NCBI RefSeq assembly: GCF_004751985.1
Contig: NZ_CP038492.1
Span: 930,001 to 994,000, forward strand
Source of the DNA: Rhodophyticola sp. CCM32
Lineage (GTDB): Bacteria > Pseudomonadota > Alphaproteobacteria > Rhodobacterales > Rhodobacteraceae
DNA: 64,000 bases
Reading direction: 5' to 3'
The notes under the pieces were generated by a model. That model was not told where the DNA came from and searched no databases. It saw only the letters and a list, made by a program, of their open reading frames with translations. The translations under genes and the position numbers were made by a program. This document shows, piece by piece, positions 46,008-57,998 of this stretch. Every line of letters begins with the position of its first letter. The stretch's first letter is position 1.

Positions 46008-46434
46008 CGACGCAGAACGCGGACGCCAAAAGCTTGCTTCTATGGGTCCGTCTGAGCGGGCAAAGTTCGATGCAACTTTCAGCGATATCAAGGTAAGGCT
46101 CGCCGAACTGTACGGGGAGATTGATGAACTGGTTGTTTCCAATATCCAAGCAAGGGCAGCGATCAATCTCGACGTACAAGCCCGCGTAGCGGGTGCAACA
46201 CCCCTCTGTGCAATTGAAGACACGGCCCAGCAATTGGCGGACAGCGAGCCGTGGCTTGGCGCGTATATTGACAGTAAGAACGAGAAGCTGAAACGGCAAC
46301 TTGAGGCGAATGCACTGTCAGAGCTTCCGGCACATATGCGCATGTCCATGGAACGGAGCGGCAAGCTCGTTTCTCACTTGCAGAAGAAGGTGGATGAGGG
46401 ACTTGCAGACAGGCAGGCCCAGCGCCTCAACTAG
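45997..46434 (+). CDS. Helical protein of unknown function
   Basis: 145 residues from ATG 45997; AAGGAG is 8 bases upstream, better than the in-frame ATG 45991. Mostly helical and charged (RAKFDATFSDIKVRLAELYG EIDELV; SKNEKLKRQLEANAL). No recognised family. The final base of its TAG stop is the first base of IS copy 1, so the insertion did not change the protein. Possibly a pair with the small DNA-binding-like protein upstream. Confidence 0.5.
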   Translation: MRSDDAERGRQKLASMGPSERAKFDATFSDIKVRLAELYGEIDELVVSNIQARAAINLDVQARVAGATPLCAIEDTAQQLADSEPWLGAYIDSKNEKLKRQLEANALSELPAHMRMSMERSGKLVSHLQKKVDEGLADRQAQRLN

Positions 46435-47200
46435 GCAGCGGACTCATAAAACTGGCACCATAGCCTGACGGATGCGAGTTTGATCATCGCCAAGAAGTTG
46501 GCAGATGTCTTTTCGTATCGGGTGGCTATACGGCGGAAGGAAGCTTTGAGGCGGCCAAAGAACCGCTCGATCTTGTTGCGCTCGCGATAGATATCGACGT
46601 CGAACTCGGCGGGCAGTTTGCGGTTGGATTTGGACGGGATGACGTCGATGGCGCCCTGTTCCCAGATCATCTTGCGGATCGAATCCGCGTCATATGCCTT
46701 GTCAGCCAGAACGTATTGGCCAGGTTGCAGCCCGTCCAAAAGCTGTTCGCATGGGGGTGCATCGTGGGCTTGGCCCGGCGTCAGTTCATAGCGGATCGGC
46801 AACCCGTCCTGATTGGTAAGTGCATGTATTTTCGTGGTTAACCCACCCCGCGACCGGCCCATGCAACGACGCGGGTCGTTTTTTTGAGCGTCGCTGCAGA
46901 ATGGTGAACCCGAACCGATGTGCCATCCACCATCACGGTGTCGATATTGTGCGCATCGGCGACCGCCTCCATTACCCGATCCCAAATGCCCGCATAAGTC
47001 CATCGGTTGAAACGGTTGTAGATCGTTGTGTAGGGGCCGTATTGATCGGGCAAATCGCGCCACGGGATGCCTGTGCGCAAGACATAGAAGATGCCATTGA
47101 TCACACGCCGATCATCGACACGCTTAACCCCTCGGCTGTTATTTGGGAGCACTGCTTTGATGAACTCCCACTCCAAATCGCTCAAATCTGACCGCGCCAT
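46431..47200 (-). CDS. IS5-family transposase (two frames), copy 1
   Basis: The first frame (start MARSDLSDLEWEFIKAVLPN at 47200) contains the N-terminal DUF4096-type domain and the first catalytic Asp (TVMVDGTSV). The second (KNDPRRCMGRSRGGLTTKIH ... LADKAYDADSIRKMI ... NKIERFFGRLKASFRRIATR) holds the second Asp and the Glu of the DDE triad. A run of seven T/A at 46875-46881 at the overlap is a slippery site for programmed frameshifting into one protein. The stop codon is completed by the host TA plus one flanking base (TAG here). Confidence 0.88.
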
Positions 47201-47279
47201 TCCACTGCTCCGCATATTGTCTTGCGGGAAATGAATCATAACAGGCTGGAAACGTGAAGCTCTTTGTAAGTACGCTGCC
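46434..47279 (-). mobile_element. IS5-family element, copy 1
   Basis: 846 bp with terminal inverted repeats GGCAGCG / CGCTGCC and TA on both sides as target duplication. One transposase split over two frames (IS427-like organisation). The insertion site is the centre of a short palindrome (TCAAC-TA-GTTGA). Confidence 0.9.
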
Positions 47280-47539
47280 TAGTTGAAGAATAGCCCAGTT
47301 GATCCTTTCTCCGACGGCTGGGCGATGCGAGGGAAGCCGAGTGCGACCGTCAAAGGTCATGGCTACTTGGCCCGGCGACAGGTGGACTTGGGCTTGCTTC
47401 CAATGTGAGGTCTTCCTGTTGCCGACTTCCCTCACAACTGAATATCCCAGCGTTAATGGCGCGTGCGCTGGGGTCCCGATTTAGCGCCTTCCCCATATCC
47501 TTGGACCCGACGAACAGGAGTAATCATCATGGAAGTATA

Positions 47540-48979: not shown

Positions 48980-49489
48980 ATGGAATTGGATTTAAAGGTT
49001 TTTATTGGCGGGCCAATTCAATACGCCATTGCTGGCGGCGAATTCCAGCGCGAGTTGAAAGTATTAATTGAAGAGGTCCTGAGCACCATCGAGCGCGCTG
49101 GATACCAGGTCTTCTCTGCGCATCGCTTCGAGAAGTTTGGCGAACTTGATGTCGACGGCCAACACTTTGAGGTCACGCAACGCGATTTTGCGTGGATGCA
49201 GTCGTGCGATGTATTCATGGCGATCTTGCCGAACGAAGCGCCTGGCGTGTCTATACGAACTGACGGCACTTGCGTCGAACTTGGTTGGGCTTCGTCTCTT
49301 GGACGCCCCATCATCATCGTGCGTGACCTCGACACTGGGCACAGCCATTTAATTAAGGGCTTAGGTTCAGTTGCGCGGGTGGAGGAGATTGCTCTCTCCA
49401 CTGTGTTGCAAGACCCCGAGGTTGCCGTTTCGGCGATAGAGAGCGTGGCGCGGGTGGCGGTAGAGCCGCCGCGGGACCCGGTGCAATGA
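48980..49489 (+). CDS. Nucleoside 2-deoxyribosyltransferase-fold hydrolase (BlsM/MilB-like)
   Basis: 169 residues from ATG 48980 (TTG 48986 has better ribosome-site spacing after AGGAG). KVFIGGPIQYAI at 6-17, SAHRFEKFGEL at 46-56, CDVFMAILPNEAPG at 76-89 and DGTCVELGWASSLGRPIIIV at 95-114, with catalytic Glu100, fit the NDT superfamily. The spacing of GGP...SAHR-x-E-x-x-G...D-V-F-x-A...GT-x-V-E-x-GWA-S is that of the CMP N-glycosidases MilB and BlsM, which free cytosine from (hydroxymethyl-)CMP. The next genes are the same as in those pathways, so a CMP-type hydrolase is the best guess. Overlaps the radical SAM start (ATGA). Confidence 0.75.
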   Translation: MELDLKVFIGGPIQYAIAGGEFQRELKVLIEEVLSTIERAGYQVFSAHRFEKFGELDVDGQHFEVTQRDFAWMQSCDVFMAILPNEAPGVSIRTDGTCVELGWASSLGRPIIIVRDLDTGHSHLIKGLGSVARVEEIALSTVLQDPEVAVSAIESVARVAVEPPRDPVQ

Positions 49490-50466
49490 GGGAGAAGTAT
49501 CTCTTCGTCCGAATCCTTGAGGCCTGCAATGCCAACTGTTTCATGTGCGATTTTGCCTTGTCGAAAGACCGTTACCGCTTCACTCCAGCGGAGCTCTCAA
49601 CGTTCCTGGTCGAAGCAGAGCGATACGGGGTAAAATATGTCAGGTTGACCGGTGGCGAACCTCTTATTCATCCAGACATTTGCGAGTTGGTCGAGATCAT
49701 TTCCAGTGCTGGTATGAAGAGTTCGATAATTACTAATGGCTCCGCATTACCGTCTCGAATAAACGCACTTGCCAAGAGCGGGCTTTACCAGATTATCGTC
49801 AGCATTGATGGGCTCGACAGCTCTCATGACGATATCCGCGGTTTCGCTGGCCTTTTCAACCGTTGCGCGGAAGGCCTGACGAAAGCCAAGTCATTAGGTA
49901 TGAGAACGAGGGTGAACACCGTGGTGGGCCCGCACAACTACCGCGACATGCCGGCCTTGCAACGTATTCTGACCGATCTCGGCGTCGATCAGTGGGAACT
50001 CTCCGCAATTAAGTTGGATCGGCACATTGCCTACAGTGATAGGCAGGACGTCATCACCGTTTGTGAGCCAATCTACAAATCTCCCCCTGGATTGCTGGTA
50101 CCGACCGGTCACCGATTCTACGGCGAGACCCGCGAAGCACAAAACGCCTTCTTTAATCTCGGCACTTGCCCGAAGCCTAGCGGTCAGCGGTGCAACCTAA
50201 TGGGCGACGTAATCTACTTCGACCCCAAAGTAGACCGTGCCTTTGGCTGCAGCTTGCTGCCGCACCGCACAGGAGACGGTAAGGCCAATGGCGCGATCAT
50301 TCGTACTCCGGATGGCGCTTGGTCTCTGAATTCTTCGGCTTGGCTTGATCATGTGAGCCACTACGCCTCGACAGGGCACCGTGGTTGCAAGGGCTGCTCA
50401 ACAACGGCGGCAGGTTATAGCGATGCGGTAGATACGGGCGACGAGATAGCGGACCTCGCCTTCTGA
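49486..50466 (+). CDS. Radical SAM enzyme, cytosylglucuronate decarboxylase-like (BlsE/MilG type)
   Basis: 326 residues. The [4Fe-4S]-SAM cluster motif is C14-NAN-C18-FM-C21, followed by LTGGEPL at 55-61. Further cysteines at 228, 236, 255, 301 and 304 (CKGCSTTAAGYSD) could bind an auxiliary cluster, as in SPASM-type enzymes. The overall pattern (LFVRILEACNANCFMCDFAL; TRVNTVVGPHNYRDMP; WELSAIKLDRHI) agrees with BlsE, which decarboxylates cytosylglucuronic acid in blasticidin S synthesis. The match is from memory of the family, not a search, but the flanking genes support it. Operon position two; 25 bases before the aminotransferase gene. Confidence 0.75.
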   Translation: MREKYLFVRILEACNANCFMCDFALSKDRYRFTPAELSTFLVEAERYGVKYVRLTGGEPLIHPDICELVEIISSAGMKSSIITNGSALPSRINALAKSGLYQIIVSIDGLDSSHDDIRGFAGLFNRCAEGLTKAKSLGMRTRVNTVVGPHNYRDMPALQRILTDLGVDQWELSAIKLDRHIAYSDRQDVITVCEPIYKSPPGLLVPTGHRFYGETREAQNAFFNLGTCPKPSGQRCNLMGDVIYFDPKVDRAFGCSLLPHRTGDGKANGAIIRTPDGAWSLNSSAWLDHVSHYASTGHRGCKGCSTTAAGYSDAVDTGDEIADLAF

Positions 50467-50491
50467 ACCAAAAATTCTGGGAAAACACTCG

Positions 50492-51715
50492 ATGCGACAA
50501 AAGACCACCGACCCAATTTTCCAAGCCGATGAAGGTCTTGCAATTCATGGGGGCACTCCCGCACGTGCCGAGGCAATCTTTACCGGTGTTTGGCCATCAA
50601 ATAATGCGCGCGCTCAGGTTGCTGAGATGATGAACTCGGGGCTACTTTCGAATTACTATTCTGGTCCATGGGCGCGAAAGTTTGAACGTGCCTTTGCTGC
50701 CTATTTTGGTCCGGAGTATCGAGGCGTTTCTGTCAACTCCGGCACATCGGCGCTGCACCTTGCACTGACAGCTGCGGACATTGGCTCGGGTGATGAGGTC
50801 ATCGTCCCGGCATTCTGTTTCGTCGCGGCGGTGACAGCCATCGTCCAGAATGGCGCTATTCCTGTGATCTGCGATGCCGAACCCGCTTCACTGACAATGT
50901 CCGCCGACCGGATCAAGGAGTTGATTACTCCGCGTACTAAAGCCGTTCTGGTCGTACACTTCTGGGGCCACCCTGCAGAGATGGATGCCATCACCAAGCT
51001 CTGCCATGATAATGGCGTGAACCTAATCGAAGACTGTGCGCAGGCCTTCGGCGCGCAGGTTCTTGGTCAATCTGTCGGCACCTTTAGTGATTTCGTAACC
51101 TACGCCTTTTCGGTGCGCAAACACATCTCTTGCGGCGAAGGCGGCATGGTCATGTGCAATGGCGAAGCGCATCACGAGCGATTGCGCGTGCTGGCTAACT
51201 ACGGCAAGGGTCCAGATTGGGATGACTACGACAGCGCCGGTTTCAGCTACAGAATGGCGGAGTTTCCAGCCATTGTGGGCCTAGATGGACTTGCGCGCCT
51301 CGATGACGAGATCGCTGCGCGTCAATATGCCGGTGATTGCTACGCCCAAGTTCTGCCCCGCGAAGGGCTGGAGCCTGTGGTCGACCCAGCCTGGGGTAGA
51401 AGTGCTTTTTTCAAGTGTCCGGTCATGGTGCCGGATTCCGCAAAGAAAATCCGCGGGGAACTAGTCAAGGCCATTGGTGCTGAGAACATTAGCTGCCGCA
51501 TCCCGCACCGCCCGCTTTTCCGGATTGAATGGTTGAATGCCTACCTTCAAGAAAAAGGTGCCTTGATGACTGCTGACGACTGCCCGATCGCTCGTGATGC
51601 CCATCCCCGCCTTATCGAGCTCGAAACAGGGCCCCATCTTCCTCCTCCAGAGGTCGCCGTAAGCTGCGAAGGAGCACTCAAAGTCTGGCGCCACTTTGCC
51701 AATTCGGGCTCGTAA
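50492..51715 (+). CDS. DegT/DnrJ/EryC1/StrS sugar aminotransferase
   Basis: 407 residues. PLP fold type I: SGTSALHLALTAADIGSGDEV IVPAF near 83-107, LIEDCAQAFGA with Asp181, and the Schiff-base lysine K210 in AFSVRKHISCGEGGMV. Family members move an amino group to a keto-sugar. In blasticidin S synthesis a related enzyme (BlsH) aminates C4' of the hexose after the BlsE step, so the same role is proposed here: amination of the 4'-keto hexosyl-cytosine. The C-terminal domain (PHRPLFRIEWLNAYLQEKGA) is complete. Six bases separate it from the next gene. Confidence 0.88.
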   Translation: MRQKTTDPIFQADEGLAIHGGTPARAEAIFTGVWPSNNARAQVAEMMNSGLLSNYYSGPWARKFERAFAAYFGPEYRGVSVNSGTSALHLALTAADIGSGDEVIVPAFCFVAAVTAIVQNGAIPVICDAEPASLTMSADRIKELITPRTKAVLVVHFWGHPAEMDAITKLCHDNGVNLIEDCAQAFGAQVLGQSVGTFSDFVTYAFSVRKHISCGEGGMVMCNGEAHHERLRVLANYGKGPDWDDYDSAGFSYRMAEFPAIVGLDGLARLDDEIAARQYAGDCYAQVLPREGLEPVVDPAWGRSAFFKCPVMVPDSAKKIRGELVKAIGAENISCRIPHRPLFRIEWLNAYLQEKGALMTADDCPIARDAHPRLIELETGPHLPPPEVAVSCEGALKVWRHFANSGS

Positions 51716-51721
51716 ACCCTT

Positions 51722-52855
51722 ATGTCCCGCCCCCTATCACGCACTGCTAAGACACTCGTCATTGCTGCCTGCCACTTTGGCTGGGGCAGTCTTGGCAAGC
51801 TCAGGCTGATACTCGAAGAGCTTCCGCCGCATCGGTTGATACTGTACGATATGCCGCCGATGACCACAAAAATCCTTTCGCTAGAAGCTATGCACCACGA
51901 GATTGTCAGCAGTCCGCCCGCGACAGCTGACGCTGCACTCGTCATTAATGATCCAGGCCAGGCCAATGCTTTGGTCGGCCTTGGCCTCGCTGTCGTCTAC
52001 GTCGACAGTCTGCCTTATATGTGGGCGAGCGTGGATGAAGTGCCCGCGGCCGGTACCACTGTTGTCTACTGCGCGCAGCGATACCCGAAGGATGTGCTGC
52101 CGCTCGCCGCCTGCCTTGCCTCACGGCCAGATTTGCGCTGGGTTGATCCTATAGTCCCAGGCTCGCACCGCCGGACGGGCGGAGCAGGAGTGTTGGTCAA
52201 CGTTGGCGGGGTGCACAGCCACCTTTCGGGAGATAACACGTTCGACTATGTGGAGCTTGTGTTGCCTGGTGTCCTCGACGGTCTCGCGGAAGCCGGGGTG
52301 CAGGTGGCTGGTGTGTGCGGCAACATCGGTGGCGACTGGGAGGCTGAGGTGAAAGTGCGCTTCGGTAATGCTGTCGCCACTGGCGTGCAGAGCGGTTCTG
52401 TCTTTGAGCGTCTTCTCAAGAGCTGCGACTTGTTGGTGACATCGCCCGGCAGTACCACTGTCTTGCATGCGATGCAGATCGACTTGCCTACACTGCTTCT
52501 TCCGCCGCAGAATCTCAGCCAAATACTGAACGCGCAGCTCTACCTTAGGGCCGACAGCACTGCCTTTTCGTGGCCCGAAAGCGTGCTCTCGATGCCCTCA
52601 ATTGCCGCGCTGCGACCCATGGGCGAAGAAGCCGTCGTTCATGCCATCTACTCTGCCCTTTCCAAGGCTCGGCGGGATGAGTTGCTTAGTAATGAGACCA
52701 CTGAATACCTGCGTAGCGCATTCAACCCGATTCAAGCCGAAGGTCACACCTGCACTTTCTTCGACCGCGATGGAGCCCGTGGAGCACACCAGGTGGCGCA
52801 GATCGTGCGGCAGGTTTGCCTCGCTCCTTTTGCGTTTACCAAAGGATCTTCCTGA
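51722..52855 (+). CDS. GT-B glycosyltransferase, cytosylglucuronate-synthase-like
   Basis: 377 residues. Two Rossmann-like halves: VIAACHFGWGSLGKLRLILE at the N-terminus and GVLVNVGGVHSHLSG ... CDLLVTSPGSTTVLHAMQ ... LPTLLLPPQNLSQILNAQLY in the C-terminal nucleotide-sugar domain. The 'SPGxTT-x-x-x-A' loop is that of MurG/UGT-like enzymes. The likely counterpart in known pathways is BlsD/MilC, which joins free cytosine and UDP-glucuronic acid. Together with the NDT hydrolase (cytosine source) and the radical SAM enzyme (next step), this is the expected third partner. Assignment by context and fold, moderate confidence. Confidence 0.7.
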   Translation: MSRPLSRTAKTLVIAACHFGWGSLGKLRLILEELPPHRLILYDMPPMTTKILSLEAMHHEIVSSPPATADAALVINDPGQANALVGLGLAVVYVDSLPYMWASVDEVPAAGTTVVYCAQRYPKDVLPLAACLASRPDLRWVDPIVPGSHRRTGGAGVLVNVGGVHSHLSGDNTFDYVELVLPGVLDGLAEAGVQVAGVCGNIGGDWEAEVKVRFGNAVATGVQSGSVFERLLKSCDLLVTSPGSTTVLHAMQIDLPTLLLPPQNLSQILNAQLYLRADSTAFSWPESVLSMPSIAALRPMGEEAVVHAIYSALSKARRDELLSNETTEYLRSAFNPIQAEGHTCTFFDRDGARGAHQVAQIVRQVCLAPFAFTKGSS

Positions 52856-52858
52856 GCC

Positions 52859-53869
52859 ATGGGCGACCGCGATATCGTGCTGGTAATTCGCCACCATGGC
52901 TTGGGTGACCTGATGACGGCACAACCGGCGCTGCGGGCGTTGCGGCGCGCCTACCCAAACCACTGGCTCGTTACGACCTGCCCATCTTGGCTATGCGATT
53001 TGGCGCGGCGCCTAGAGTGCGCGGATGAGTTCATTCAAGACCAACCGCATAAAGGCACTATCGGTCCGACCGATCATCAGGCTGCCGACCCCGAAATCCT
53101 AGCAAAAGTTTCCGCGCTTAAGGGCCGAGTGGACCGGCTTGTCTCGCTCCGCACCCCTGGGCCCGAATTGTTGCCGCTGATCGATGCAGTCTCACCTAAG
53201 CACGTTCTGAGTTATCGTTACCCCTTGTTACCCCAAGCTCGGACCTCTCCTGACCTCGATTTTGCCGACCCCATTCATACTCGCTGGGCACGGCTGTTGA
53301 TCAAGTGGGATGTCCATCCGAATCCTAAAGAACTGTTTTTACGTGAACTGCAGCCGCTCAATCCTAGCGCTCCTGTAATTATTCATACCGGCGCTGGTAG
53401 CCCCGCCCGGTTGTGGCCGGAGGATCGTTGGGCTGAGGTCATCCAATGGCTTGCCGCGGACGGTTGGGGGGTCTTACTCACGGGTACCGAGCGCGAAAGG
53501 GCGCGCATCACCAGAATTGCAGAACTTGCGCTGCTGAGTGAGCAGTGCATTGCTGCGGGCGAAACGACGGCCTGTGGCATGCTGGACCTTGTCGCTGGTG
53601 CCACCTGTGTCGTCTCAGTCGACAGCGGCGTAGCGCATTTGGCTACTGCCCTGCGCACCCGTGCAGTGACGCTTTTCGGCCCAGTCCCGCCTGCCTGCTG
53701 GGGTCCCCCGGCGCAATGCACAGAACACATGACGCTCTGGACCGGGCAGGAGAATAATCCTTATGGAGAGACTACGGACAAAGGGCTGCTTCAAATCTGG
53801 CCGCAAGACGTGACCGAAGCACTGAGGCAGGCATTGAGCTTCGTTCGGCCTGAATCTCATGCCGTCTAA
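52859..53869 (+). CDS. GT9 (heptosyltransferase-type) glycosyltransferase
   Basis: 336 residues. VLVIRHHGLGDLMTAQPALR at the N-terminus and PVIIHTGAGSPARLWPEDRW AEV, LTGTERE, and VVSVDSGVAHLATALRTRAV TLFGP in the C-terminal half are the GT9/ADP-heptose:LPS heptosyltransferase signature, including the D-S-G-x-x-H acceptor of the nucleotide-sugar. No known blasticidin-type pathway uses a GT9 enzyme, so a decoration of the nucleoside with heptose or another sugar is inferred. Overlaps the surE-like gene by 11 bases. Confidence 0.82.
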   Translation: MGDRDIVLVIRHHGLGDLMTAQPALRALRRAYPNHWLVTTCPSWLCDLARRLECADEFIQDQPHKGTIGPTDHQAADPEILAKVSALKGRVDRLVSLRTPGPELLPLIDAVSPKHVLSYRYPLLPQARTSPDLDFADPIHTRWARLLIKWDVHPNPKELFLRELQPLNPSAPVIIHTGAGSPARLWPEDRWAEVIQWLAADGWGVLLTGTERERARITRIAELALLSEQCIAAGETTACGMLDLVAGATCVVSVDSGVAHLATALRTRAVTLFGPVPPACWGPPAQCTEHMTLWTGQENNPYGETTDKGLLQIWPQDVTEALRQALSFVRPESHAV

Positions 53870-54692
53870 CCCGCCGCTCATCCTTGTGACGAACGACGAT
53901 GGGCCGGATACGCCCGGTCTTCTGGCCGCTGTCGAGGTAGCGCGGCGGTTGGGTGAGCCGCTGGTTGTCTGCCCAACCGAGAACCAGACTTGCATGTCGC
54001 GCGCATACTTGCGGCATCCGAATGCGGGCGCGATCAACCCACACCACTTCCCAACTTCGGGCGGTGACGTAGCTGGCTATACTGTTTCGGGCGCGCCTTG
54101 TCAGGTCGTCTCGCACGCACTTATAGAACTAGCGCCACGTCAGCCAGATATCTGCTTGTGTGGCATCAACAAAGGCGAGAACCTGGGCTATACAGTGCAC
54201 TTGAGCGGGACGGTCGCGGCGGCGGCAGAGGCGGCCAACCACGGCGTGCCCGGCTTGGCCGTGAGCTTGGGAGACGATGGCGCTCATTTCGGGGTCGCAT
54301 TGGACCACTCCCTTTGGGCCTACCCTATTGACGTTACCACCGAGCTTGTACTCTTGGCACTAAAACACGGACTCGGCCCGGGCGTCTCTTGCCTTAACGT
54401 CAACATCCCGAGCGACGCCGAAGCAAGTGCCGGCTGGCGTGTCTGTCCGCAAAGCTCAATGGACCCTTACCGCCCACAAGCACCAGGCGTCCGCGATCTG
54501 GCTGCGCCGCACCAATTCACCTTCGCCGCGGCCTACACCGAAGACCAGATCGTGGAAGGTTCCGATCTGGACGTTTTCTGGCGCCAGCGGAGCGTTGCCG
54601 TTACCCCGCTCGCCTTCGATCTCACCGCGAGAGGCAGCGGTGGCAACGTTGTTCAGCCATTCGCAAACCTACCTTCAGGTCAAAGGTTATGA
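53859..54692 (+). CDS. SurE-like 5'/3'-nucleotidase
   Basis: 277 residues. VTNDDGPDTPGLLAAVEVAR with the metal pair D13-D14, NQTCMSRAY, and CGINKGENLGYTVHLSGTVA AAAEAANHGVPGLAVS are the SurE motifs. SurE removes phosphate from nucleoside monophosphates. Within this cluster it could act on a phosphorylated nucleoside intermediate or product, a possible self-protection or release step. The C-terminal part (SSMDPYRPQAPGVRDLAAPH) is longer than in housekeeping SurE. This is a second, mobile-element copy of the family and is not linked to pcm or rpoS as the core surE often is. Confidence 0.85.
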   Translation: MPSNPPLILVTNDDGPDTPGLLAAVEVARRLGEPLVVCPTENQTCMSRAYLRHPNAGAINPHHFPTSGGDVAGYTVSGAPCQVVSHALIELAPRQPDICLCGINKGENLGYTVHLSGTVAAAAEAANHGVPGLAVSLGDDGAHFGVALDHSLWAYPIDVTTELVLLALKHGLGPGVSCLNVNIPSDAEASAGWRVCPQSSMDPYRPQAPGVRDLAAPHQFTFAAAYTEDQIVEGSDLDVFWRQRSVAVTPLAFDLTARGSGGNVVQPFANLPSGQRL

Positions 54693-55624
54693 CCCCGTCG
54701 TTACGCATCCTGCAAATCGCTACAACGCTGCATGAGCCCTGCGGCATCGGCTATTTCGCGCAGCGGATGGGGACTGCGCTCAGCAAAGCGGGTGCACAAG
54801 TGCGTACGGTCGACGGCTTCGTCGAACAGCAAGCCGATGTGATTATCGTCCACCACCACGGCGAACTCGTGCCAAGTGCCACATTGCGCGCATTTGCCTA
54901 CCAAGCCCGCGCGCCGGTCGTCCTAATGCCGCACGACGATACGTGCGGGTCGCTTTATGGCGATGTTTCTGCCGTCGTTGCGCTCACGCCCGAACTCATC
55001 GCCGGGGCCAAACGATCCTATTGGTTCCCGCATCCCTCCGAGACATTCCGGACGGGAACCGCCCGCTCCAAATTGCGCGAAAGGTATGGCTTGCCCAAGG
55101 AAAAGCTGATCCTTGGAACCAACGGATTCCTAAAGTACGAACGTAGCTTCGATATAGTTACCGCGGCAGTGCTGAAAGCTCTCCCGGAGGTCGCTGTTTC
55201 TCTCGTACTTAGCCCCTGGAGGCTGCCCTCTCCTGGTCTGTTAGAAAAGCTTGTTGTACTTTGCGAGTCGCACCCTGGTAGGCTTAATCTAGCTTACGAG
55301 AAATGGAGCGACCAGGAGCGCTTCGACCGCCTTCGCGCGTGCGATCTCCTTTGGTGCTGGGTCGATGCGCCGTCTTCTCCATACGCCAGCGGCGTCGTCT
55401 CAGATCAATACGCCTCGGGTACCCGCTTGGTCACCACCGACAAATCCCAACATCGACACGTTCTCTCATTGCCAAATGTTGTGACAGCCCCACCAAACCT
55501 CGAAGGTTTCCTCGATACTTTGATTGCCGCCGCCCGCCAGCCATGCCTCCGGCACGACCCTGAGGTCATCGCCTGGGAGCGGCAGATGCCGGGGCTGTTG
55601 GAGTTTTTGGAGTCGCTTACCTAA
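54689..55624 (+). CDS. Glycosyltransferase (GT4-like)
   Basis: 311 residues. RILQIATTLHEPCGIGYFAQ RMGTALSKAGAQV is a GT-B opening of the GT4 type (usually binding the acceptor). VVLMPHDDTCGSLYGDVSAV VALTPELI and ILGTNGFLKYERSFDIVTAA correspond to middle and donor-domain elements, and SPYASGVVSDQYASGTRLVTT to the donor-site loop. The donor is not predictable. Last gene of the cluster, coupled to surE by ATGA. About 100 bases later IS copy 2 begins. Confidence 0.7.
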   Translation: MTPSLRILQIATTLHEPCGIGYFAQRMGTALSKAGAQVRTVDGFVEQQADVIIVHHHGELVPSATLRAFAYQARAPVVLMPHDDTCGSLYGDVSAVVALTPELIAGAKRSYWFPHPSETFRTGTARSKLRERYGLPKEKLILGTNGFLKYERSFDIVTAAVLKALPEVAVSLVLSPWRLPSPGLLEKLVVLCESHPGRLNLAYEKWSDQERFDRLRACDLLWCWVDAPSSPYASGVVSDQYASGTRLVTTDKSQHRHVLSLPNVVTAPPNLEGFLDTLIAAARQPCLRHDPEVIAWERQMPGLLEFLESLT

Positions 55625-55723
55625 ATGCTGGGAACAGTAACTAATGCTACCCGTGGTATTTCAGCGTATTACGTATTCCCAGTCCAATTAGGAATATGAA
55701 GAGCGCTGATATGAGGCCCTGAC

Positions 55724-56493
55724 TTAGGCAGCGGACTCATAAAACTGGCACCATAGCCTGACGGATGCGAGTTTGATCATCGCCAAGAAGTTGGCAGATG
55801 TCTTTTCGTATCGGGTTGCGATGCGGCGGAAGGAAGCTTTGAGGCGGCCAAAGAACCGCTCGATCTTGTTGCGCTCGCGATAGATATCGACGTCGAACTC
55901 GGCGGGCAGTTTGCGGTTGGATTTGGACGGGATGACGTCGATGGCGCCCTGTTCCCAGATCATCTTGCGGATCGAATCCGCGTCATATGCCTTGTCAGCC
56001 AGAACGTATTGGCCAGGTTGCAGCCCGTCCAAAAGCTGTTCGCATGGGGGTGCATCGTGGGCTTGGCCCGGCGTCAGTTCATAGCGGATCGGCAACCCGT
56101 CCTGATTGGTAAGTGCATGTATTTTCGTGGTTAACCCACCCCGCGACCGGCCCATGCAACGACGCGGGTCGTTTTTTTGAGCGTCGCTGCAGAATGGTGA
56201 ACCCGAACCGATGTGCCATCCACCATCACGGTGTCGATATTGTGCGCATCGGCGACCGCCTCCATTACCCGATCCCAAATGCCCGCATAAGTCCATCGGT
56301 TGAAACGGTTGTAGATCGTTGTGTAGGGGCCGTATTGATCGGGCAAATCGCGCCACGGGATGCCTGTGCGCAAGACATAGAAGATGCCATTGATCACACG
56401 CCGATCATCGACACGCTTAACCCCTCGGCTGTTATTTGGGAGCACTGCTTTGATGAACTCCCACTCCAAATCGCTCAAATCTGACCGCGCCAT
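55724..56493 (-). CDS. IS5-family transposase (two frames), copy 2
   Basis: Protein sequence identical to copy 1 in both frames (start at 56493; slippery T/A run at 56168-56174). Stop codon again completed by the flanking bases, here TAA and not TAG. Presumably functional, like copy 1. Confidence 0.88.
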
Positions 56494-56572
56494 TCCACTG
56501 CTCCGCATATTGTCTTGCGGGAAATGAATCATAACAGGCTGGAAACGTGAAGCTCTTTGTAAGTACGCTGCC
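55727..56572 (-). mobile_element. IS5-family element, copy 2
   Basis: 846 bp, same ends and orientation as copy 1, flanked by TA. I found three differences, all within seven bases (55817, 55820 and 55823 versus 46524, 46527 and 46530), each synonymous. Confidence 0.9.
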
Positions 56573-56601
56573 TAGAAGTCCAAATTAGCGAGGGTCCTCT
56601 T

Positions 56602-57864: not shown

Positions 57865-57998
57865 TGCCGCAAACCTGCCTCCGGGAAACGCGCCTTTGCC
57901 GCAGCTCCTTTGGTTGACCGGCCTGCGTGCCGGGGATAGACGTGACCCTAACCGGACCGATGGTCCTCAGGCGTGCGTAACGGCCCAGGAGATCACAG

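What the first reader, a model, noticed from the sequence alone, without database searches (positions are those of the whole stretch)
48980..55624. Mobile cluster resembling the early cytosine-nucleoside antibiotic pathway (blasticidin/mildiomycin type) in a marine alphaproteobacterium
Seven coupled genes: an NDT-fold hydrolase with the MilB/BlsM motif spacing, a BlsE-like radical SAM enzyme (C14-x3-C18-x2-C21), a DegT aminotransferase (K210) and a GT-B enzyme fitting cytosylglucuronate synthase, then GT9, SurE and a GT4-like enzyme. The first four would make cytosine, couple it to glucuronate, decarboxylate and aminate it. The peptide-side genes of blasticidin (lysine aminomutase, arginine ligase, N-methyltransferase) are absent, so the product should be a different, glycosylated aminohexosyl-cytosine. 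Such a pathway in Rhodobacteraceae is, as far as I know, undescribed.
Basis: partly seen in the sequence, partly recalled or inferred. Interest (0 to 1): 0.93.

Follow-up and report, generated by a model that had tools for sequence, protein, structure and literature searches.

The report
Split cytosine-nucleoside antibiotic cluster with ribosome genes
A bacterium, probably a marine alphaproteobacterium, carries genes for the first steps of a blasticidin-like antibiotic pathway, and a second stretch of its chromosome holds likely partner genes, including a sugar-making set and two spare ribosome-related genes that may protect it from its own product.

Summary
In detail: seven intact, tightly coupled genes at 48980-55624. 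The radical SAM protein matches the BlsE-type model at its cut-off (400 bits) and a solved cytosylglucuronate decarboxylase at 4e-103; the first glycosyltransferase matches the CGA-synthase model below its cut-off (211.8 of 300); the hydrolase's six PDB matches are all CMP-hydrolase/BlsM entries. None of 294 other sampled family genomes has a comparable BlsE. In a Lysobacterales MAG the last six genes lie in the same order and run on into RlmB-like, radical SAM/SPASM, HldE, GmhB and GmhA genes. Here that second half (minus SPASM, plus an extra EF-P) sits 276 kb away among transposase-like ORFs; a shared 14,326-base contig length of the nearest relatives suggests the halves are normally joined. 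Best reading: a heptosylated 4'-amino-cytosyl nucleoside acting on the ribosomal P site, with self-protection by an RlmB paralogue and by EF-P copies that two hosts recruited independently. The biosynthetic core is well supported; product, target and protection are inferred.

The parts
48980..49489 (+). BlsM/MilB-type CMP N-glycosidase homologue (NDT fold); start codon uncertain
   Evidence: PF05014 5.7e-11; the six PDB sequences matched at E<=0.001 are named CMP N-glycosidase (4jen), CMP/hydroxymethyl CMP hydrolase (4jem, 4ohr, 4jel, 4ohb) and Blasticidin M (5vto); E100 in DGTCVELGWAS aligns with the Glu of GTHVEIGWAS
49486..50466 (+). BlsE/MilG-type radical SAM enzyme
   Evidence: TIGR04466 8.8e-120, 400 bits against cut-off 400 (399.4 bits, marked not over); PDB 7vob/7voc cytosylglucuronate decarboxylase 4e-103; 51-54% to annotated blsE of Streptomyces and Kitasatospora plasmids
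50492..51715 (+). DegT/DnrJ PLP sugar aminotransferase, perosamine-synthase-like
   Evidence: PF01041 1.2e-86; best PDB 3bn1 perosamine synthetase 2.1e-53; Lys210; 67% in L014, 57% in L015, 52% in L016
51722..52855 (+). cytosylglucuronate-synthase-family glycosyltransferase
   Evidence: TIGR04467 1.7e-62, 211.8 bits, below cut-off 300; many homologues named hydroxymethylcytosylglucuronate/cytosylglucuronate synthase by JGI, one by NCBI
52859..53869 (+). GT9, heptosyltransferase-like
   Evidence: PF01075 1.4e-23; best PDB ADP-heptose:LPS heptosyltransferase II 1psw 2.3e-15
53859..54692 (+). SurE-like nucleotidase/phosphatase
   Evidence: PF01975 3.6e-38; PDB SurE 3ty2 7.5e-18; NDDG motif
54689..55624 (+). 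GT4-like glycosyltransferase of a cluster-linked family
   Evidence: AlphaFold pLDDT 96.2, glycosyltransferase neighbours in PDB; 67 homologues including itself, 11 of 66 non-self contig lengths shared with CGA-synthase homologues
46425..47290 (.). left IS copy (transposase ORFs on - strand)
   Evidence: direct copy at 55718; at least 17 near-full copies in the genome
48465..48845 (-). transposase-like fragment next to the hydrolase (named by eye)
   Evidence: ORF; family not searched
55718..56580 (.). right IS copy (transposase ORFs on - strand)

Best explanation
These genes are one half of a proteobacterial cytosine-nucleoside pathway. The hydrolase frees cytosine from CMP; the CGA-synthase homologue joins cytosine to UDP-glucuronate; the BlsE-type radical SAM enzyme acts on cytosylglucuronate, most likely giving a 3'-deoxy-4'-keto sugar; the DegT enzyme aminates C4'. 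The GT9 enzyme then most likely adds a heptose from an ADP-heptose, made by GmhA, split HldE and GmhB encoded 276 kb away; the GT4-like enzyme adds a further sugar; SurE removes a phosphate at an unknown step. The product probably binds the ribosomal P site as blasticidin S does. The producer protects itself with a dedicated RlmB-like 23S rRNA 2'-O-methyltransferase and an extra EF-P. Shown by sequence: families, synteny, copy number, tree placement. Inferred: every reaction, the product, the target and the self-protection.
For: Families. Same gene order rSAM-DegT-CGAS-GT9-SurE-GT4 at 56-67% in L014 (Lysobacterales MAG) and rSAM-DegT-CGAS-GT9 at 39-57% in L015 (Desulfatitalea MAG). In L014/L051 the cluster continues into a pentapeptide protein, RlmB-like, SPASM, HldE II, HldE I, GmhB and GmhA. 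The own genome holds the same block at C1:1261651-1266633, minus SPASM and plus an EF-P. The HldE kinase there is the only strong match in the genome (277.7 bits, itself below the 345 cut-off; next 34.6); EF-P has two copies; one NDP-sugar dehydrogenase over cut-off exists. The cluster RlmB copies form one clade (support 1.000) apart from the other RlmB-type copies of the same genomes. Two cluster EF-Ps are each sister to their own host's other EF-P (0.98, 0.964). In L015 the RlmB and BlsE-type ORFs are 4 bases apart on one strand. Contig-length linkage. Papers (passages): blasticidin interacts with G2252 or G2253 of the P-loop (PMC4085065) and distorts the P-site CCA end (PMC8287960); RlmB modifies G2251 of the P-loop (PMC12123411); EF-P interacts with the P-site CCA end through its KOW loop (PMC11611912); ADP-heptoses are intermediates of septacidin nucleosides (PMC10948575).
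Against: CGA synthase is under its curated cut-off and BlsE sits at it; GmhA, GmhB and HldE I are below theirs. The hydrolase has no match in the L014 and L015 genomes, both MAGs, so it may not be a constant part. SurE and GT4 have no match in L015. No EF-P lies in the L014 cluster. SPASM has no counterpart here, so this strain may make a truncated or different product. No transporter was recognised by ORF reading in either half. GT9 and heptose genes also serve LPS. Many RlmB-like relatives, including Rhizobiaceae MAG proteins, lie on contigs not seen with a CGA synthase. RlmB already makes Gm2251 in E. coli, so the paralogue would need another site or a host without it. No expression or chemistry data.
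Confidence: 0.62

Rival explanations
1. The cluster makes a cytosine nucleoside (amino-CGA or its glycoside), but the RlmB and EF-P paralogues are passengers of a heptose/translation island and not self-protection.
For: EF-P is beside cluster genes in 2 of 3 proteobacterial genomes and absent from the L014 cluster; RlmB-clade genes also occur on contigs without a seen CGA synthase.
Against: RlmB sits with the cluster in L014 and L015 and in the second half here; 10 of 45 RlmB-relative contigs over 10 kb share a length with a CGA-synthase or GT4-family contig (control mean 0.06), 8 of 43 without the two query loci; the RlmB and BlsE-type ORFs are 4 bases apart in L015.
Confidence: 0.2
2. The genes make a cytosine-containing surface glycan or lipopolysaccharide decoration, not a diffusible antibiotic.
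For: GT9, a GT4-like enzyme, ADP-heptose genes and a GT4 in the second locus; no exporter recognised.
Against: No polymerase, flippase or lipid carrier gene was recognised in either half (ORF reading plus the family searches; not every ORF was searched); extra EF-P and RlmB point to the ribosome.
Confidence: 0.12
3. The locus in this strain is a decaying relic of a working cluster found in relatives.
For: Halves 276 kb apart, surrounded by transposase-like ORFs (named by eye), pentapeptide gene truncated, SPASM gene absent.
Against: All seven genes here and EF-P, RlmB, HldE I/II, GmhB and GmhA there are open without stops.
Confidence: 0.2
4. Ordinary polysaccharide enzymes with superficial likeness to BlsE/BlsM.
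For: DegT and GT9 are common in polysaccharide loci (established knowledge).
Against: TIGR04466 8.8e-120, TIGR04467 1.7e-62; best PDB hits are BlsE-type and CMP hydrolases.
Confidence: 0.03

Closest known systems
Blasticidin S / mildiomycin / arginomycin clusters (Streptomyces)
   Same: CMP hydrolase, CGA-synthase family enzyme, BlsE-type radical SAM, a DegT aminotransferase; annotated examples on Streptomyces and Kitasatospora plasmids
   Different: DegT only 28-30% identical to those; no separate blsF-type gene, aminomutase, ligase or N-methyltransferase among these seven genes; GT9, SurE, GT4-like, ADP-heptose, RlmB and EF-P genes instead
Heptose-bearing CGA-type locus of Plantactinospora mayteni (L016)
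   Same: hydrolase 47%, rSAM 48%, DegT 52%, CGAS 43% and gmhA-, hddA- and gmhB-like genes
   Different: no GT9, SurE or GT4 match in the 21 kb held; GHMP-type kinase instead of HldE; no RlmB match in L016, best in that genome 34%
Septacidin/spicamycin nucleosides
   Same: ADP-heptose used for a nucleoside antibiotic (PMC10948575, passage)
   Different: adenine nucleosides (recalled); no CGA or BlsE step (recalled)
RlmB and SPOUT resistance methyltransferases AviRb, Tsr, NHR
   Same: substrate-binding plus SpoU domains; TIGR00186 163 bits against 160.15; related enzymes confer antibiotic resistance (PMC12123411, passages)
   Different: own clade, 29-37% to the other RlmB-type copy of its own genome; target site unknown
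Elongation factor P / EfpL
   Same: all three EF-P domains; TIGR00038 224.2 bits over cut-off, EfpL model below cut-off
   Different: second copy in this island; loop reads TGKSG instead of PGKGG

Membership tests
BlsE/MilG cytosylglucuronate radical SAM (TIGR04466) | score at or over curated cut-off 400 | tested here: inconclusive
   400 bits against 400; 399.4, marked not over,
BlsE/MilG cytosylglucuronate radical SAM (TIGR04466) | CxxxCxxC cluster motif and GGEP motif | tested here: met
   C14/C18/C21, GGEP at 56
BlsE/MilG cytosylglucuronate radical SAM (TIGR04466) | acts on cytosylglucuronate | not testable with these tools
   needs enzyme assay
CGA synthase (TIGR04467) | score over curated cut-off 300 | tested here: not met
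   211.8 bits, positions 71-380 of 382; so called a family homologue only
CMP N-glycosidase (BlsM/MilB) | nearest solved relatives are CMP hydrolases, catalytic Glu kept | tested here: met
   6 of 6 PDB sequences at E<=0.001; E100 aligned (catalytic role of that Glu is recalled)
Blasticidin S-type cluster | peptide-side genes (aminomutase, ligase, N-methyltransferase) | tested here: not met
   none among the seven genes; rest of the genome not searched for them
ADP-heptose pathway | GmhA, HldE kinase, HldE adenylyltransferase, GmhB over their curated cut-offs | tested here: inconclusive
   HldE II 182 over 181.5; GmhA 152.8 of 209.45, GmhB 93.8 of 149.6, HldE I 277.7 of 345, all below, but near full-length and adjacent
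RlmB | score over curated cut-offs | tested here: inconclusive
   own copy TIGR00186 163 over 160.15, but NF008386 139.1 of 366; L015 copy 176.8 over, L014 copy 141.2 below; modification of G2251 not testable here
EF-P | score over TIGR00038 cut-off 185.8 | tested here: met
   224.2 bits
Composite transposon | two IS copies bounding the segment, empty site, target duplication | tested here: inconclusive
   flanking IS present; at least 17 near-full copies genome-wide; synteny breaks at 57888/57895; no empty site or duplication shown

The most novel reading that the evidence does not exclude
Proteobacteria make heptosylated amino-cytosine nucleosides that attack the ribosomal P site, and their producers protect themselves in a way not known before: a dedicated RlmB-clade P-loop methyltransferase carried with the cluster, plus a duplicate of the host's own elongation factor P, recruited independently in at least two lineages, that holds the P-site tRNA CCA end against the drug.
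Probability: 0.35. Interest if true: 0.92.

Novelty: new variant of a known kind. Interest (0 to 1): 0.8.

Why it matters
Cytosylglucuronate chemistry is known from Streptomyces; here it appears in this genome and in Lysobacterales and Desulfatitalea MAGs, with a heptose branch. If EF-P duplication is self-protection, it would be a new resistance principle that can be tested with in vitro translation. A blasticidin S analogue, P10, has been isolated from marine sponges (PMC12911931; abstract, introduction and discussion read); the sections read name no gene cluster for it. This locus lacks the peptide-side genes and is not claimed to make P10, but it suggests that such chemistry is not confined to actinomycetes.

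Tried and rejected
Viral origin: 32 stretches matched the patterns in viral contigs, none was a relative. Plasmid carriage of this cluster: CGA-synthase relatives on only 4 plasmid records, all actinobacterial, 28-33% identity; DNA of the cluster matches three actinobacterial plasmid records weakly, over 2-6% of the query. RlmB on plasmids: 83 records, none at 60% identity or more; the 8 listed are Klebsiella and E. coli at 36-37%. Polysaccharide-only reading: disfavoured. One recruited EF-P gene shared by the clusters: rejected, the two cluster EF-Ps group with their hosts' other EF-P. Shared IS between the two halves: none found by blastn between L023/L024 and the window. SPASM remnant here: none found. 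An MilB Arg23-to-Gln argument for CMP over hydroxymethyl-CMP was considered but rests on recall and was left out. The first alignment of EF-P and RlmB copies took wrong-strand ORFs and was discarded; one search replaces it. On re-reading, a claim of a good ribosome-binding site before 48980 was dropped (spacing one base).

Limits: contig-length matching uses the longest contig per cluster, the best 120 of 199 CGA synthases (119 with a length) and 120 of 6927 RlmB relatives; contigs L014 and L015, which supplied two of the three query sequences, are included in the 10 of 45 (without them 8 of 43); of the 13 shared lengths the three under 10 kb may be chance (control mean over all lengths 1.37, maximum 7). 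How common a second EF-P is in this bacterial family was not measured. The trees have 8 EF-P and 10 RlmB-type sequences; 'housekeeping' in my notes is my label for the non-cluster copies. The BlsE search used a sample of the family.
Full report
OBSERVATION. The seven genes at 48980-55624 are real, intact and tightly packed. The start of the first gene is uncertain, because AGGAG ends one base before its ATG. More than chance: TIGR04466 (cytosylglucuronate decarboxylase) scores 8.8e-120 and TIGR04467 (CGA synthase) 1.7e-62. The curated cut-offs are 400 and 300 bits; the radical SAM protein sits at its cut-off (400; 399.4, marked not over) and the glycosyltransferase below it (211.8). The hydrolase matches six PDB sequences at E<=0.001, named CMP N-glycosidase, CMP/hydroxymethyl CMP hydrolase (four) and Blasticidin M. 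The radical SAM protein matches the solved cytosylglucuronate decarboxylase 7vob/7voc at 4e-103.

RARITY. Of 295 sampled genomes of the family (own included), 289 have some radical SAM protein with a match to TIGR04466, but only the own genome has a strong one (399.4 bits; next 75.9). A scan of 84,980 species genomes with a CGA-synthase profile of 34 sequences (A1, chosen from 120 listed) returned 7 loci from 66 pattern matches: a Lysobacterales MAG (L014, 62%), a Desulfatitalea MAG (L015, 39%), Plantactinospora mayteni (L016, 43%), a Pseudonocardiales MAG (35%), a Streptacidiphilus (35%), S. coeruleorubidus (36%) and a Firmicutes MAG (26%). The pattern step limits sensitivity, so this is a floor; indeed one search found four more actinobacterial plasmid records.

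THE OTHER HALF. L014 carries rSAM-DegT-CGAS-GT9-SurE-GT4 in the same order as the window at 61, 67, 62, 56, 57 and 56% identity. After the GT4 come a pentapeptide-repeat protein, an RlmB-like methyltransferase, a radical SAM/SPASM protein, the two HldE domains as separate genes, a transposase-like ORF (named by eye), GmhB and GmhA. Searching the own genome with the L014 methyltransferase gave a 62% match 276 kb from the window's cluster. Around it (G000:C1:1261651-1266633, L023) lie a pentapeptide-protein fragment, an EF-P, the RlmB-like gene, HldE II, HldE I, GmhB and GmhA, in the same order as in L014; identities are 57-64%, the pentapeptide fragment 36%. SPASM has no counterpart here; EF-P is extra. 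The nearest database relatives of the CGA synthase (81%), the GT4 (80%) and the RlmB-like protein (91%) all give 14,326 as their longest contig, which suggests that one contig carries both halves. That is inference from equal lengths, not a read sequence. So the split in this genome is probably secondary; transposase-like ORFs surround both halves, but no IS is shared between them by blastn.

HEPTOSE. The HldE kinase in the second half is the only strong match in the genome (277.7 bits against a cut-off of 345; next 34.6). HldE II is over its cut-off (182 against 181.5); GmhA and GmhB are near full-length but below theirs. The window's GT9 has ADP-heptose LPS heptosyltransferase II as best PDB match. 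The Plantactinospora locus also has gmhA-, hddA- and gmhB-like genes near the CGA-type genes. An ADP-heptose donor for the GT9 is therefore the most economical reading; precedent for ADP-heptose in a nucleoside antibiotic is septacidin (PMC10948575, one passage). One NDP-sugar dehydrogenase over cut-off could supply UDP-glucuronate; its substrate is not shown.

CHEMISTRY. In the 2013 paper BlsE decarboxylates cytosylglucuronate to cytosylarabinopyranose (PMC3715490, abstract and passages). [quoted passage not shown] Under dehydration the carboxylate stays and a 3'-deoxy-4'-keto-hexuronate results (recalled), which a perosamine-synthase-like DegT enzyme could aminate at C4'. The DegT protein is 28-30% identical, in local alignments, to the DegT genes of two annotated blsE clusters (L059, L061) and the S. 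coeruleorubidus locus (L019), and 52-67% to those of L014-L016, so it is probably not the same gene as in the classical clusters.

RIBOSOME GENES. RlmB methylates G2251 of the 23S rRNA P-loop (PMC12123411, passages). Blasticidin interacts with G2252 or G2253 of the same loop (PMC4085065, passage) and distorts the P-site tRNA CCA end (PMC8287960, passages). EF-P interacts with that CCA end through its KOW loop (PMC11611912, passages). The RlmB-like copies of the own genome, L014 and L015 form one clade (support 1.000; 54-64% identity) and are 29-37% identical to the other RlmB-type copy of their own genome. In L015 the order is EF-P, RlmB, BlsE-type, DegT, CGAS, GT9, all on one strand, with 4 bases between the RlmB ORF and the next ORF. 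EF-P has two copies in the own genome and in the L015 genome; the L014 genome has two, both on contigs other than the cluster's. The own cluster EF-P is sister to the own genome's other EF-P (47.6%, support 0.98), and the L015 one to its genome's other EF-P (54%, 0.964): two separate recruitments, on a small tree of 8 sequences. Among 119 distinct contig lengths of RlmB relatives, 13 equal a length in the CGA-synthase or GT4 lists; over 10 kb it is 10 of 45 (8 of 43 without the two query loci), against a control mean of 0.06 and maximum of 2 in 2000 jittered sets. So most long contigs with such a gene were not matched: the link is strong but not exclusive, or the lists are too short. For the GT4 family it is 11 of 66 non-self against a control mean of 0.35, maximum 4.

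LITERATURE. Full-text searches of the open PMC library returned no paper whose title or shown abstract start describes a CGA/BlsE cluster in Proteobacteria or an EF-P self-resistance gene; only listings were seen except where passages are cited, 7 of the 17 papers were not listed, and most subscription papers are not held. PMC12911931 (abstract, introduction and discussion read) reports a blasticidin S analogue, P10, isolated from marine sponges; the sections read name no cluster for it.

VERDICT. Biosynthetic core: about 0.85 likely. Heptosylated product: about 0.65. Ribosomal target with self-protection by RlmB and EF-P: about 0.5. Main thrust of the whole mechanism: 0.62. New variant of a known kind.

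Noticed in passing
L015:12040-13488: A protein whose N-terminal part looks glycosyltransferase-like by eye and whose C-terminal part has only a weak radical-SAM-activase-type match (3.4e-4); it lies between the GT9 and SPASM genes. Unusual fusion.
   Followed up: no
L060 (Rhodococcus sp. 2G plasmid p1): Nucleoside 2-deoxyribosyltransferase, CGA-synthase-like protein (28%) and NDP-hexose 2,3-dehydratase genes, no annotated blsE in the 25 kb shown; an amicetin-like possibility is recalled only.
   Followed up: no
L061 (Kitasatospora sp. NBC_00039 linear plasmid): Blasticidin-like set on a plasmid: CGA synthase, blsE, blsF, arginine 2,3-aminomutase, DegT, ligase, NDT.
   Followed up: no
proteins P0231, P0244, P0257, P0275: RlmB-clade relatives in Rhizobiaceae MAGs at 57-63% identity on contigs not seen with a CGA synthase; the clade may serve other inhibitors too.
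   Followed up: no
L023:11651-11992 and L014:13900-15273: Pentapeptide-repeat protein beside the cluster in L014 and an N-terminal fragment of a relative here (36%); role unknown.
   Followed up: partly
window 57888: Synteny with four same-genus genomes stops just upstream of the nuoA-like ORF; nothing to the left in the window matched their fetched 18-19 kb stretches by blastn at 1e-8.
   Followed up: partly
G298:C4:3870825-3871377: EF-P match in two pieces (positions 2-75 and 75-184) in the Streptacidiphilus genome: frameshift or sequencing error.
   Followed up: no
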